NCBI GenBank assembly: GCA_963693285.1 | Contig: OY848927.1 | Span: 1,056,501-1,120,500 of the forward strand | Direction of reading: 5' to 3' | From: Xestospongia muta | Lineage: Eukaryota > Porifera > Demospongiae > Haplosclerida > Petrosiidae | Length of the DNA stretch: 64,000 bases | Shown: piece by piece, positions 2,287 to 18,631 of the stretch | Numbering within the stretch: the stretch's first letter is position 1 | How the letters are laid out: every line of letters begins with the position of its first letter | Program-made: the position numbers and the translations under genes | Notes under the pieces: model-generated | What the model was told of the DNA's origin: nothing | Databases searched by the model: none | The model's input: only the letters and a program-made list of their open reading frames with translations

Positions 2287-2920
2287 ATGATTTGGTAAGC
2301 CAAACAATAGATATTGTAAAATTAATGACTATTATTGCAGGTTTATTGCAGTTATTGCCATCTTAGGTGTTACATCAGCCTCAAATATTGATCTTCTTGC
2401 TGGAGAGTGGAAAAATGAGTTGGGGTCTACTATGTGCATATACTGGCAAACTGTACCCTCTGGACAATTGAGTGGATGGTATAACTCACTTGTTGGTCAA
2501 GCTGAGAATCAATATGATTTGGCAGGAAGATATGATATTGAATCAATTAATGGAGGCACATTGGGATGGTAAGAAAAGTCATCTAGTCAATATATATAAA
2601 TATGCAAAAATTTGGCCTCATTGAAAGTGCCAGTAATACTAACAGGATGAACTTAGTTCTTTACATATTAATAAATTATCTATATGTATTAAGATATCTT
2701 CATTTATACATGTAGGACAGTAACATGGCGTAATCAAGACATGACTGCTAATTCAACTACTACCTGGTCTGGACAATGGCAAAAAACACGTTCTGGTATT
2801 CGTATCTTCACAACATGGCTCCTAACATCCCAGACTGAACCTAAAGATAACTGGAAATCTACCCTTGTGGGTAAAGATACATTTTATAGGACAGCTAACT
2901 ATTGCAAAAAGATGAATTAA
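2287..2920 (+). CDS. Avidin/streptavidin-like secreted biotin-binding protein, copy 1
   Basis: Three exons: 2287-2294, 2341-2568 and 2716-2920, giving 146 residues. Exon 1 encodes only MI and part of W; the signal peptide reads MIWFIAVIAILGVTSAS. The mature part follows the avidin fold: LAGEWKNELGSTMCIY (strand 1, with the Asn and Ser that contact the biotin ureido ring), GWYNSLVGQ (Tyr and Ser), GRYD, LGWTVTWRN (Trp), STTTWSGQW (Ser, Thr, Trp), TTWLLTS (Trp), NWKSTLVGKDTF (Trp and Asp). These match streptavidin positions N23, S27, Y43, S45, W79, S88, T90, W92, W108, W120 and D128. The tail is YCKKMN, without the SDEL ending of copies 2 and 6. Expected to fold as a tetramer or dimer in the secretory route or outside the cell; biotin binding is inferred. 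Confidence 0.9.
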
Positions 2921-3415
2921 ACTCAAGTGATGAACAGTGACCACAAATACAAACAATACAAATAACAATACATAATTATACAGGTTGGATAAACATAATA
3001 CTATTTTAATTACTAATGTATTATGAAATTGATGGTTATGTAGCTAGCTAAATAAGCAATAGTACATTAGTAACAAAAACAGTGTTGTCCTTACTTTTTG
3101 ACATAAATAAACTTTTAATTACTACCTGTATAACCATCTAATGATTTACAGTGGTGGAAACTGTTGTCATGGCACAGATACATTATGACCCAACCACTTG
3201 TATCTTATGCTAATACAACATGTGACGTTTTGGACTTATGGCTCTCAATATCGCATACTGTACCAACAAAAAACTTTATGATTTAGCAATAATCTATACA
3301 TAATTAATTATGTCAGTTCTTAATGGGTGTGGCTTATCATTGAGAATAAGGTAAAACCTAGCTGCAGATTTACATTTGTTATTCATTCATTCTTTTGATA
3401 GAGGGATTGTTATTG
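2921..3415. repeat. 3' flank of avidin copy 1 (cluster repeat)
   Basis: Non-coding, AT-rich. Versions of this block lie downstream of the other avidin copies (for example 4770-5420, 9680-10310, 15880-16200, 18710-19130). It includes a motif near 3170-3210 that is palindromic in two of the other copies. No gene seen. Confidence 0.75.
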
Positions 3416-3510
3416 TATTGTGTCACTTACCACTTTTTCCTCAACAAGTCCATCCCGGAAGAACAACATATAAGGTGTAAGACCATCTTCATGGAAATTC
3501 AGTAAAGCTA
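3416..3510 (-). pseudogene. TCTP (TPT1) exon 5 fragment
   Basis: Matches the 5' splice donor and the C-terminal half of the last coding exon of the intact TPT1 gene at 19164-19280, on the same strand. It ends abruptly at the residues corresponding to ALLNF. No other exons follow, so it cannot make TCTP. Confidence 0.85.
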
Positions 3511-3511
3511 G

Positions 3512-3760
3512 TTGGATTAGGAACAGTTGAAACAGAATCTGCTTATAGCTTCAATTGAAGCCATGATTCAATTACTATAGCAAAGTGGATCTAAAAGAAA
3601 TGTGGTTGTAGATGCAACTAGTTGGCTTTATGCACATCAAGATACACTATAGTTGGCCTTGTAGCAACTTAGAACGGGTTTACATCATATTGATGAAACT
3701 GTGGTAACGAAGACCTTGGTTAAAATGACAAAATGCTTTTTTCAGTGTATATAGGAGGAG
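3512..3760 (+). pseudogene. Degenerate coding fragment, possibly XPG/FEN1-type N-terminus
   Basis: One frame reads RNVVVDATSWLYAHQDTL, then a stop, then more protein-like sequence to about 3750, with another in-frame stop upstream. The VVVDATSWLY motif resembles the start of XPG-type nucleases, but the match is short and I am not sure. A second copy lies at 8142-8395 with the same stops, so the fragment was dead before it was duplicated. It sits inside the promoter-side repeat of avidin copies 2 and 4. Confidence 0.35.
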
Positions 3761-3952
3761 TAACAACAAGAGAGCAGATGATCAGTAGTTTAGCATCATA
3801 AACTGAGTACCTCTGTCACTTTGATGGTTTACAACATGAGTAATTATAATGAGAGAATTGAATACTTACAATGAATCTACTATAACTTAACAGGAAACCC
3901 CTAATTGAATTGCAAACCAAACTAGAACTTATAGGTTTCCTCCATTATTGTC

Positions 3953-16203: not shown

Positions 16204-16654
16204 GGGCTGGGACGAAGGTGCATTTCCTTACTTCGAAGAATCGTTGCAAAAACATTCGAATACTTTGAAGGTTTGCATGGGCAACGTAACGTAAACTGTG
16301 AAACCATAAAAATCTAATTTCAACTAAAAATAATTAAAAAATTTATTTATTTAATGTCCAGTTCTTATTTAAAAATACAAGAGCATCAACATTTTTAGGC
16401 TTGAGGCAGGATCTTAAGGAAGAAACTGTTAGTCCAGCTTTGGAGAATGTTCTCTCAGATGCTGTAGACGTTGCTGGTATATTAAGAATTTCTGCTGCTA
16501 GCTTACTGAGATGTGGAAATCTATGACAGTTTTCTTTCCACCACTTAATTAGGTTAATATCTTGTGATGCTGATATCTCAGACAAGTATTGTTGGAACTC
16601 CAATTCTGGGGTAATATTACAGTGATGGTAACTGTTGTCATGGCACAGATACAT
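16204..16654 (-). mobile_element. hAT transposon fragment (C-terminal transposase domain)
   Basis: A minus-strand frame (16343-16654) contains WWKENCHRFPHLSKLAAEIL followed by NIPATSTASERTFSKAG, the dimerisation region typical of hAT-family (BED-type) transposases, and ends in a stop at 16343. The TE edge at 16204 (TAGGGCTGGGACGA) looks like a hAT terminal repeat. The transposase is cut off at its N-terminal side near 16620, where avidin/TCTP flank sequence resumes; the first residues of the frame are read from that flank. Confidence 0.85.
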
Positions 16655-16865
16655 TATGGTCCAACTACTCGTATCTTATGCTGATACAGCATGTGACATT
16701 TTGGACTTGTGGCTCTCAATATCACATACTGTACCAACAAAAACCTTGTGGTTTAGCAATAACCTATACATAATTAATTATGTCAGTTATTTATAGGTGT
16801 GGCTTATCATTGAGAATAAGGTAAAACCTTCCTGCAGATTTACAATTCTTATTTCATTTTTTCTT

Positions 16866-17080
16866 CTGCCATTTACTACTTTTTTCTCAATAAGTCTATC
16901 CTGGAAGAACAACATATAAGGTGTAAGACCATCTTCACGGAAATTCAGTAAAGCTACCATACCTTCGTCATTATTTGATTCACTATAATAGAAGTCAAAA
17001 TCCTTGTAATTATCAAATACCTATAAACCAGAGAGACCATTAAGTAAATGTAATCATATATATTATATTGAACAATTAAT
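16866..17080 (-). pseudogene. TCTP (TPT1) exon 5 fragment
   Basis: Matches the last coding exon and part of intron 4 of TPT1 (about 19180-19395) with scattered changes, for example a changed codon in the FFRDGL stretch. It stops abruptly at about 17080 where avidin 5' flank sequence begins. No other exons. Confidence 0.82.
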
Positions 17081-17681
17081 GACAGGGTTGTCTTCTCATT
17101 GTCTGGTTTAGTTTTTAGATGTCAGATTGACGGAAACTATGATTTGATATTCAATTATTATCATTATGTCAATTCTTAGTTAATCTGTTTGTTCATGAAA
17201 TTTTCCAATAGTAATAATTCGCGCTCTAAATAATTTTAATAAATATTAAATGCACTGTCAGCCCACAGTGCAAAGAGAAAGTTTACATTCAATGTAAGGA
17301 TATACTGCTATTAACAGTTATGAAGGGACAAGTAAAAGAATTAGTTTCAAACTTTCAACACTTTCAGTAATGAGAGACTGGGTACATTAAGTATAGGAGG
17401 AGTGACAACAAGAGAGCAGATGATCAGTAGTTTAGCATCATAAACTGAGTACCTCTGTCACTTTGATGGTTTACAATTATAATATAATTAGGTAGAGAGT
17501 TGAATTCTTATAATAAATCTATTGTAACTTAACAGGAAATCCCTAATTGAATTGCAAACCAAACTAGAACTTATAGGTTTCCTCCATTATTGTCTATATA
17601 AGCAAGTAATACATTTGGCAGTACTGTCTTTTCATTGTCCACTGCTCATATTGAAAAATAGCGAAATAGATTGAAACAATT
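17081..17681. repeat. 5' flank repeat of avidin copy 7
   Basis: Same block as upstream of copies 4 and 6, followed by the conserved proximal 100 bp with a TATA-like box at 17595-17602. No gene seen. Confidence 0.65.
17595..17602 (+). promoter_or_regulatory. TATA-like box of avidin copy 7
   Basis: TATATAAG about 80 bp before the ATG at 17682. Confidence 0.45.
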
Positions 17682-18631
17682 ATGATTTGATAAGCCAAAC
17701 AATAGATATCGTAAACTTAATGACCATTAATATTATTGCATGCAGGTTTATTGCAGTTATTGCCATCTTAGGTGTCACCTCAGCCTCAAATATTGATCTT
17801 CTTGCTGGAGAGTGGAAAAATGAGTTAGGGTCTACTATGTGCATATACCAGCAAACAGTACCCTCTGGACAGTTGAATGGATGGTATAACACACTTGTTG
17901 GTCAAGCCAAGTATCGATATGATTTGGTAGGAAGATATGATACATAGGATGCTGAGGGTGGGAGCGAAGGAGGCTAATGCCCCCCCAACTTTTATAAAGA
18001 GGGAGCAGAGCCCCCCCCCCCCCCCCCCAACTTTTACATAGTGTAAAAAGTGTTCTTTGCCACTTGTGTTAAACATTAAAAATTACCCACTGTTAAACAT
18101 GTTAAATATTTTGGTATATTTTAATTCTCGTTTTAAAAATGTTTTCTTTTGCAAGTGACACTGTGTACAAGTATGTTCAGCCCCCCCCCCCCCCCCCAAC
18201 CTTTTTGAGCTTTCTCCACCTATGTCAGATACTGGATCAATTAATGGAGGCACATTGGGATGGTAAGAAAAGTCATCTAGTCAATATATAAATATGCAAA
18301 AATTTGGCCTCATTGAAAAGTTCCAGTAATACTGATAGGATGAACTTAGTTCTGTACATATTAATAAACTATCTATATTTATTAAGATGTCTTCATTTGT
18401 ACATGTAGGACAGTAACATGGCGTAATCAAGACATGGCTGCTAATTCAACTACTACCTGGTCTGGACAATGGCAACAAATAAAGTTTGATATTTATATCT
18501 ATACAACATGGCTCCTAACATCCCAAACTGAACCTACAGATAACTGGGAATCTACCCTTGTGGGTAAAGATACGTTTTTAAAGATACAAGATGATTGCAA
18601 AGATAAAAGAAACCCTAGTGATGAACTGTGA
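17682..18631 (+). pseudogene. Avidin-like copy 7, disrupted by a transposon and a donor mutation
   Basis: Exon 1 starts at 17682 but the donor GT is AT here (TTGATAAG instead of TTGGTAAG). Exon 2 (17746-18262) is split by a ~285 bp insertion at 17943-18227 after GRYD. Exon 3 (18409-18631) is fully open, reads STTTWSGQWQQI to NPSDEL, and keeps the late contact residues. The exon 2 sequence is of the copy 6 type (AKYRYDLVGRYD) while exon 3 is of the copy 2/4 type (no Cys loop). Confidence 0.88.
17943..18227. mobile_element. MITE-like insertion with C-runs inside avidin exon 2
   Basis: Interrupts coding sequence between two GATA tetranucleotides. The left end begins CATAGG and the right end finishes near CCTATG, a short inverted repeat. 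It contains two long C runs (about 18010-18028 and 18181-18197). Similar CCCCAACTT sequence occurs in the MITE at 35939-36247, which suggests a related family. Confidence 0.65.

What the first reader, a model, noticed from the sequence alone, without database searches (positions are those of the whole stretch)
2287..18631. Tandem cluster of streptavidin-type avidin genes in an animal that looks like a sponge
Seven avidin genes (four intact, three broken) plus fragments sit in 16 kb. The intact ones keep nearly all eleven streptavidin biotin-contact positions (N, S, Y, S/T, W, S, T, W, W, W, D) and have a signal peptide. Avidins are known from bacteria, fungi, egg-laying vertebrates, lancelets and sea urchins, but I know of no described sponge cluster. 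They might bind biotin as antimicrobial defence, in egg or larva, or in control of symbiont nutrition. Bacterial origin by transfer is possible since the core reads closer to streptavidin than to chicken avidin, but the genes have three exons and animal promoters.
Basis: partly seen in the sequence, partly recalled or inferred. Interest (0 to 1): 0.93.

Follow-up and report, generated by a model that had tools for sequence, protein, structure and literature searches.

The report
Avidin gene cluster in a sponge
A sponge genome carries a small tandem cluster of genes for avidin, the protein that grips the vitamin biotin; the cluster is real and belongs to the animal, but avidin genes of sponges and soft corals already sit in public databases.

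Summary
Window 2287-18631 has seven avidin gene copies: four intact (AV1, AV2, AV5, AV6) and three broken (AV3, AV4, AV7), plus two stray exons. Intact genes have three exons and GT-AG introns. All four products match Pfam Avidin (best E 2.6e-25). Of 16 pocket positions compared with streptavidin, AV1 and AV2 match 15; AV5 and AV6 match 14 and have T for S45, as chicken avidin has; N49 is Q in all four. The host is a sponge by its mitochondrial ND2. Further copies lie on other contigs: a broken one on C2, and on C5 an intact relative with the same second intron but several pocket residues changed. One tree puts the family in a clade with sponge, octocoral and unnamed rows and 0 of 28 prokaryote rows; recent transfer from Streptomyces-like bacteria is disfavoured, not rejected. 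Avidins of Amphimedon, Geodia and octocorals are already in databases under automatic names. Most likely the genes make secreted biotin-sequestering proteins for defence; that function is inferred. New member of a known kind.

The parts
2287..2920 (+). AV1, intact avidin gene, 146 aa; exons 2287-2294, 2341-2568, 2716-2920
   Evidence: spliced translation open, GT-AG introns of 46 and 147 bases; Pfam Avidin 88.4 bits
4041..4693 (+). AV2, intact avidin gene, 152 aa; exons 4041-4048, 4095-4322, 4471-4693
   Evidence: an unnamed ENA 534-base contig encodes a near-identical exon 2 reading (P0002)
5746..6032 (+). AV3, broken: exons 1 and 2 only, frame lost near the end of exon 2, no exon 3 in place
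7209..7409 (-). stray inverted exon 3 with an in-frame stop; lies in an 823-base inverted copy of the AV1 3' part (96.1%)
8678..9587 (+). AV4, broken: exons 1 and 2 open, in-frame stop in exon 3 (9365 onward)
9058..9218 (+). second, partial exon 2 inside intron 2 of AV4; it starts at the edge of a 2-kb segmental duplication
   Evidence: 4168-6148 matches 9061-11040 at 95.2%
10639..11327 (+). AV5, intact avidin gene, 163 aa, with an 11-residue insert holding two Cys; exons 10639-10646, 10699-10926, 11072-11327
15102..15793 (+). AV6, intact avidin gene, 166 aa, with the same kind of two-Cys insert; exons 15102-15109, 15156-15386, 15532-15793
17682..18631 (+). AV7, broken: first donor site lost, exon 2 (17746 onward) interrupted, exon 3 open from 18409

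Best explanation
The locus is a young tandem array of animal avidin genes in a sponge. Shown: open three-exon genes, a short hydrophobic leader, the Pfam Avidin domain, an almost complete streptavidin-type pocket, duplication with decay of some copies. Inferred: the proteins are secreted, fold as eight-stranded barrels and assemble so that W120 of one subunit closes the pocket of its neighbour, bind free biotin very tightly, and so keep it from microbes in tissue, canals, eggs or larvae. A Cys in strand 2 and a Cys after strand 8 may form a disulphide that stabilises the secreted barrel. The array grows and shrinks by segmental duplication.
For: Pfam Avidin in 4 of 4. Profile match to solved streptavidins, for example 1stp E 3.8e-30. 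Pocket table: N23, L25, S27, Y43, S or T45, V47, G48, W79, S88, T90, W92, W108, L110, W120, D128 kept in 4 of 4. Leader MIWFIAVIAILGVTSAS, in AV5 with T for I, in 4 of 4. The two Cys are shared by 6 of 6 family members compared, the C2 and C5 relatives included. Long-term constraint against the C2 relative: dN/dS 0.29 (AV1) and 0.33 (AV6) by NG86; the other two genes were not compared. Duplication map. [quoted passage not shown]
Against: No binding, expression or localisation data. Among the four recent copies dN/dS is 0.67-1.15 in 6 pairs, so constraint on the present copies is not shown. In zebrafish, avidin loss changed neither development nor resistance to one pathogen (PMC13425791 abstract). 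Signal peptide judged by eye only. No structure was predicted.
Confidence: 0.6

Rival explanations
1. Recent horizontal transfer of a streptavidin gene from a Streptomyces-like bacterium, followed by intron gain and duplication.
For: Chicken avidin is not among the 60 shown of 175 solved-structure matches, which are streptavidins. Placement as sister to actinobacteria plus fungi is not rejected (p-AU 0.362). In the first, 79-row tree the base was unresolved, family plus actinobacteria had p-AU 0.361, and an archaeal row sat in the animal-like group.
Against: In the 61-row tree the family sits in a clade (96/92) with 3 sponge, 3 octocoral, 2 EukProt and 12 unnamed rows and 0 of 28 prokaryote rows (96/84 after three long rows were dropped). 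Direct sister to actinobacteria p-AU 0.052. The second intron is shared with very diverged copies on C2 and C5, so the family is old in this lineage.
Confidence: 0.12
2. The proteins have moved to another ligand or role and biotin binding is secondary, as the C5 relative suggests.
For: The C5 gene is open and keeps the second intron but has L, V, H and M at the positions of N23, L25, W108 and W120 and a gap at L110 (the alignment is uncertain around W108 to W120). dN/dS near 1 among the cluster copies; mature coding parts differ more than introns in 6 of 6 pairs, in 4 of 6 at uncorrected p<0.05.
Against: The four cluster genes keep the pocket. Flanks differ more than coding parts in 3 of 6 pairs and somewhat less in 3 of 6, so selection for change is not shown.
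Confidence: 0.15
3. A decaying cluster: leftover duplicates with little present function.
For: Three of seven copies and the C2 copy are broken; dN/dS 0.67-1.15 among intact copies.
Against: Four copies stay fully open with intact splice sites and full pockets.
Confidence: 0.13
4. Bacterial contamination or an assembly artefact.
For: Sponge DNA is contaminated by microbial DNA (PMC10542158 passages).
Against: GT-AG introns, a 6.08-Mb contig, a hAT remnant and lipoxygenase, ABC transporter and Roc-type frames near by; the intact copies differ by 8.4-10.3% in mature coding sequence; a separate unnamed ENA contig carries a near-copy of AV2 exon 2.
Confidence: 0.02

Closest known systems
Streptavidin (Streptomyces avidinii; PDB 1stp)
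   Same: Same Pfam family, same pocket residues apart from N49 (Q here) and S45 (T in AV5, AV6)
   Different: Gene with two introns; Cys in strand 2 and after strand 8; two-Cys insert in AV5 and AV6; falls outside the actinobacterial clade in the trees, though a joint clade is not firmly rejected
Amphimedon queenslandica LOC109583130 (P0063)
   Same: Sponge avidin domain with the pocket residues kept; weakly placed as neighbour of this family (81/67)
   Different: Has EF-hand matches beside the avidin domain; no leader and no C-terminal Cys seen by eye; 47% identity to AV1
Geodia barretti 'Streptavidin-V2' (P0051, P0069, P0079) and octocoral avidins (Dendronephthya, Paramuricea)
   Same: Animal avidins with the streptavidin-like core.
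   Different: Own branch; a longer C-terminal tail, in most ending ..SHPK..; grouping of this family with Geodia alone has p-AU 0.064
Chicken avidin and avidin-related genes
   Same: Multi-copy family of secreted biotin binders, some close together (PMC1082904 passages)
   Different: Four exons; much more distant in sequence (long branch)

Membership tests
Avidin family (PF01382) | Domain match above the curated cut-off | tested here: met
   4 of 4 intact products match, first at 88.4 bits against 24
Avidin family (PF01382) | Biotin-contact residues | tested here: met
   15 of 16 positions as in streptavidin, or with T45 as in chicken avidin, in 4 of 4; N49 is Q. Positions chosen from recall
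Avidin family (PF01382) | Trp from the neighbouring subunit (W120) | tested here: met
   W in 4 of 4
Avidin family (PF01382) | Secreted protein | tested here: inconclusive
   Hydrophobic leader seen by eye; no predictor run
Avidin family (PF01382) | Eight-stranded barrel and tetramer or dimer | not tested
   No structure predicted; follows from homology to 1stp
Avidin family (PF01382) | Tight biotin binding | not testable with these tools
   Needs the protein
Bacterial streptavidin clade (member by recent transfer) | Nests with actinobacterial streptavidins in a tree | tested here: inconclusive
   Outside that clade in the free trees, but held-together trees are not firmly rejected: p-AU 0.361, 0.052, and 0.362 with fungi added
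Vertebrate avidin genes | Four exons with the vertebrate intron positions | tested here: not met
   Three exons, introns in phase 2 and 2; zebavidin has four exons of 87, 211, 120 and 42 bases (PMC3811995 passage), hence phases 0 and 1 for its first two introns

The most novel reading that the evidence does not exclude
Sponges keep a fast-turning repertoire of secreted avidin-fold proteins: a tandem array of biotin binders on one chromosome plus an intact relative on another that has given up key biotin contacts and serves another ligand. Avidin would then be an old animal (perhaps pre-animal) defence fold that was diversified, rather than an egg protein of a few lineages.
Probability: 0.25. 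Interest if true: 0.65.

Novelty: new member of a known kind. Interest (0 to 1): 0.45.

Why it matters
If it holds, avidins reach sponges and soft corals, beyond the hosts usually listed (bacteria, fungi, egg-laying vertebrates, fish, lancelet, sea urchin), and one can ask what avidin did in early animals. A set of natural avidins with extra Cys pairs and a relative with a changed pocket may also serve as protein tools.

Tried and rejected
A check of the host through COX1 was asked of the genome search six times, each answered 'busy'; instead the start of contigs C26, C27 and C28 was fetched, C28 proved mitochondrial by eye and its ND2 was searched. The species was not found: the only 100% match is from an unnamed 19,052-base contig. 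A shared vertebrate-sponge intron was considered as a sign of common descent and dropped, because zebavidin exon lengths imply other phases. The first genome-contig scan used patterns peculiar to this family and found no relative; the second, with a mixed alignment, gave 41 loci. Positive selection was looked for and is not claimed: coding parts differ more than introns, in 4 of 6 pairs at p<0.05 uncorrected, but flanks differ more than coding in 3 of 6 pairs. No lancelet or sea urchin avidin was named among the 120 listed hits of 511 or of 208, so they are missing from the trees.

Rows dropped: the 79-row tree used 73 of the 199 database proteins then held, chosen by hand. The 61-row tree kept 37 of those 79 rows and added C5 and 23 of 41 prokaryote loci; the 18 left out by hand are mostly further Streptomyces and Kitasatospora rows. 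One search dropped three long rows (chicken avidin, C5, Acidimicrobiaceae). Results against my reading: a Nitrosopumilus protein sat inside the octocoral and Geodia group on a starred branch (98/99), it did not; a tree that joins the family to the two EukProt rows was 2.63 log units better than the free tree, so the free search had not found the best tree; 12 of the 26 rows in the favoured clade have no named source and could be anything, prokaryotes included.
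Full report
WHAT IS THERE. The window is bases 1,056,501-1,120,500 of contig C11 (6.08 Mb) in a 158-Mb assembly of 28 contigs. Between 2287 and 18631 on the + strand lie seven avidin gene copies. AV1, AV2, AV5 and AV6 are open: exon 1 codes 8 bases, intron 1 is 46 or 52 bases, exon 2 is 228 or 231 bases, intron 2 is 145-148 bases, exon 3 ends the gene. All eight introns run GT to AG and are in phase 2. The products are 146, 152, 163 and 166 residues. AV3 loses its frame near the end of exon 2 and has no exon 3 in place; AV4 has a stop in exon 3 and a second partial exon 2 in its intron; AV7 has lost its first donor site and its exon 2 is interrupted. 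An inverted exon 3 with a stop lies at 7409-7209.

HOW THE ARRAY AROSE. A self-comparison of 1-20,500 shows long similar blocks: 4168-6148 against 9061-11040 at 95.2%, 3508-4366 against 8146-9003 at 96.2%, and 2688-3510 against an inverted 7438-6621 at 96.1%. The second partial exon 2 of AV4 begins at the edge of the first block. This is what repeated segmental duplication with rearrangement leaves (inference). A hAT transposase remnant lies at 16346-16675 on the - strand.

IS IT AVIDIN. Pfam Avidin matches 4 of 4 intact products, best E 2.6e-25. A profile of the four matches solved streptavidins at E about 1e-30 to 1e-28 for single-domain entries; 60 of 175 matches were shown. On an alignment with streptavidin and chicken avidin, 16 pocket positions were read; the positions were chosen from recall. 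AV1 and AV2 match streptavidin at 15 of 16; AV5 and AV6 at 14, with T for S at 45 as in chicken avidin; all four have Q at 49. Position 49 varies among the other rows of that table (Q, S, D, N, E, R, V), and from recall its contact is through the main chain, so Q is not expected to abolish binding.

FAMILY BEYOND THE WINDOW. A genome-wide Pfam search listed 16 matches: 14 on C11, all in the window, and 2 on C2. The C2 copy has the same two intron positions and a TGA in exon 3; a further small piece lies 4 kb from it. A protein search found a copy on C5 at about 7,146,000. It is open over three exons, with a different first intron (phase 1) and the second intron at the same LGW|T place and phase. 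It has L, V, H and M where streptavidin has N23, L25, W108 and W120, and a gap at L110; it keeps S27, Y43, T at 45, V47, G48, W79, S88, T90, W92 and D128 (the alignment between W108 and W120 is uncertain). A second relative with most of exon 2 missing lies about 4 kb downstream. Six of six members compared (four intact cluster genes, C2, C5) share a Cys in strand 2 and a Cys after strand 8; AV5 and AV6 add two Cys in an 11-residue insert.

WHOSE GENOME. Contig C28 (18,990 bases) carries frames recognised by eye as COX1, ND1 and ND2 under code 4. ND2 is 100% identical to a protein of an unnamed 19,052-base contig. Of the 120 listed hits (6480 in all), 21 name a taxon and all 21 are sponges, at 62-77% identity; nearly all of these are demosponges (recall). 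So the animal is a sponge, most likely a demosponge, if C28 and C11 come from the same animal, as one assembly implies. The species was not identified. A 534-base unnamed ENA contig encodes P0002, which differs from the AV2 exon 2 frame by one residue over their common 93, intron 1 read through included, so this DNA was seen in another assembly too (compared by eye).

WHERE IT COMES FROM. The first tree (79 rows, 8 named bacteria, 2 archaea) left the base unresolved; the family formed its own clade (100/99), joining it to actinobacterial streptavidins was not rejected (p-AU 0.361), a Nitrosopumilus row sat in the octocoral and Geodia group, and a tree joining the family to two EukProt rows was slightly better than the free tree. 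After 23 of 41 prokaryote loci were added and unnamed rows thinned (61 rows), the family fell in a clade of 26 rows with support 96/92: 6 family, 3 sponge, 3 octocoral, 2 EukProt and 12 unnamed rows, and 0 of 28 prokaryote rows. Without three long rows the clade has 96/84. Amphimedon and one unnamed protein are the nearest neighbours, weakly (81/67). Tests on the reduced set: family plus actinobacteria p-AU 0.052; plus actinobacteria and fungi 0.362; plus Amphimedon and P0005 0.367; plus Geodia 0.064; all animal-like rows 0.419. So a recent gift from Streptomyces kin is disfavoured and an old place among eukaryotic avidins favoured, without proof. The unnamed rows and the short protein limit this.

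SELECTION. Among the four intact copies dN/dS is 0.67-1.15 with dS 0.097-0.122 (6 pairs). Against the C2 copy it is 0.29 (AV1) and 0.33 (AV6) with dS 1.2 and 1.0 (NG86). So the family was under constraint over the long run, while constraint among the newest copies is not shown. Mature coding parts differ more than introns in 6 of 6 pairs, in 4 of 6 at p<0.05 (not corrected, pairs not independent); flanks differ more than coding in 3 of 6 pairs and less in 3 of 6. This is not taken as proof of selection for change.

HOW IT PROBABLY WORKS. By homology the proteins are secreted barrels that hold biotin. Biotin is needed by all cells, so taking it out of water, tissue or egg would starve microbes. 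[quoted passage not shown] Against an easy defence story, zebrafish without avidin develop normally and resist Streptococcus agalactiae as before (PMC13425791, abstract read). Storage, or control of symbionts through biotin supply, remain open.

WHAT IS KNOWN. Avidins are reported from chicken and other birds, reptiles, amphibians, fish, lancelet, sea urchin, fungi and many bacteria (PMC8033661, passages). Database proteins from sponges (Amphimedon, Geodia) and octocorals (Dendronephthya, Paramuricea) exist with automatic names. Literature searches for avidin with sponge terms listed no paper whose title or abstract describes a sponge avidin. Some listings were capped: 20 of 454 papers, 12 of 2,805, 8 of 25; some searches listed all 6, 4 and 2. 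The Geodia genome paper does not use the word avidin in its main text (word search). The library holds open-licence papers only, so this does not show that no report exists.

VERDICT. A real, animal-encoded avidin cluster in a sponge; a new member of a known kind, with one interesting diverged relative on another contig.

Noticed in passing
L022 3725-4618 (G000 contig C5, about 7,145,724-7,146,617): Open three-exon avidin relative with the same second intron but several biotin contacts changed; a relative with most of exon 2 missing lies about 4 kb downstream.
   Followed up: partly
window 32587-34724 and 37463-39603: Two tandem lipoxygenase-like genes about 4.9 kb apart (PF00305 on the first; the second by its near-identical frames).
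   Followed up: no
window 54674-56887: One open frame with eight stretches matching the ubiquitin family (PF00240, E 1.6e-109).
   Followed up: no
window 48786-52514, - strand: A 1243-residue frame with no Pfam match at E 0.001; by eye a membrane protein with a long outer part.
   Followed up: no
window 57489-59805, - strand: Roc GTPase match and a COR-B match below its cut-off: perhaps a Roco protein.
   Followed up: no
P0162 and P0186; L077, L081, L082: Avidin proteins in archaea: Nitrosopumilus ureiphilus, a Thermoplasmatota MAG, a Nitrososphaeraceae MAG and two Methanoperedens MAGs.
   Followed up: no
P0017 and P0096: Two EukProt transcripts, probably of one source that the tool does not name, encode avidins with a leader and, like the sponge family, a Cys after strand 8; possibly a choanoflagellate by the naming style (recalled, not checked).
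   Followed up: partly
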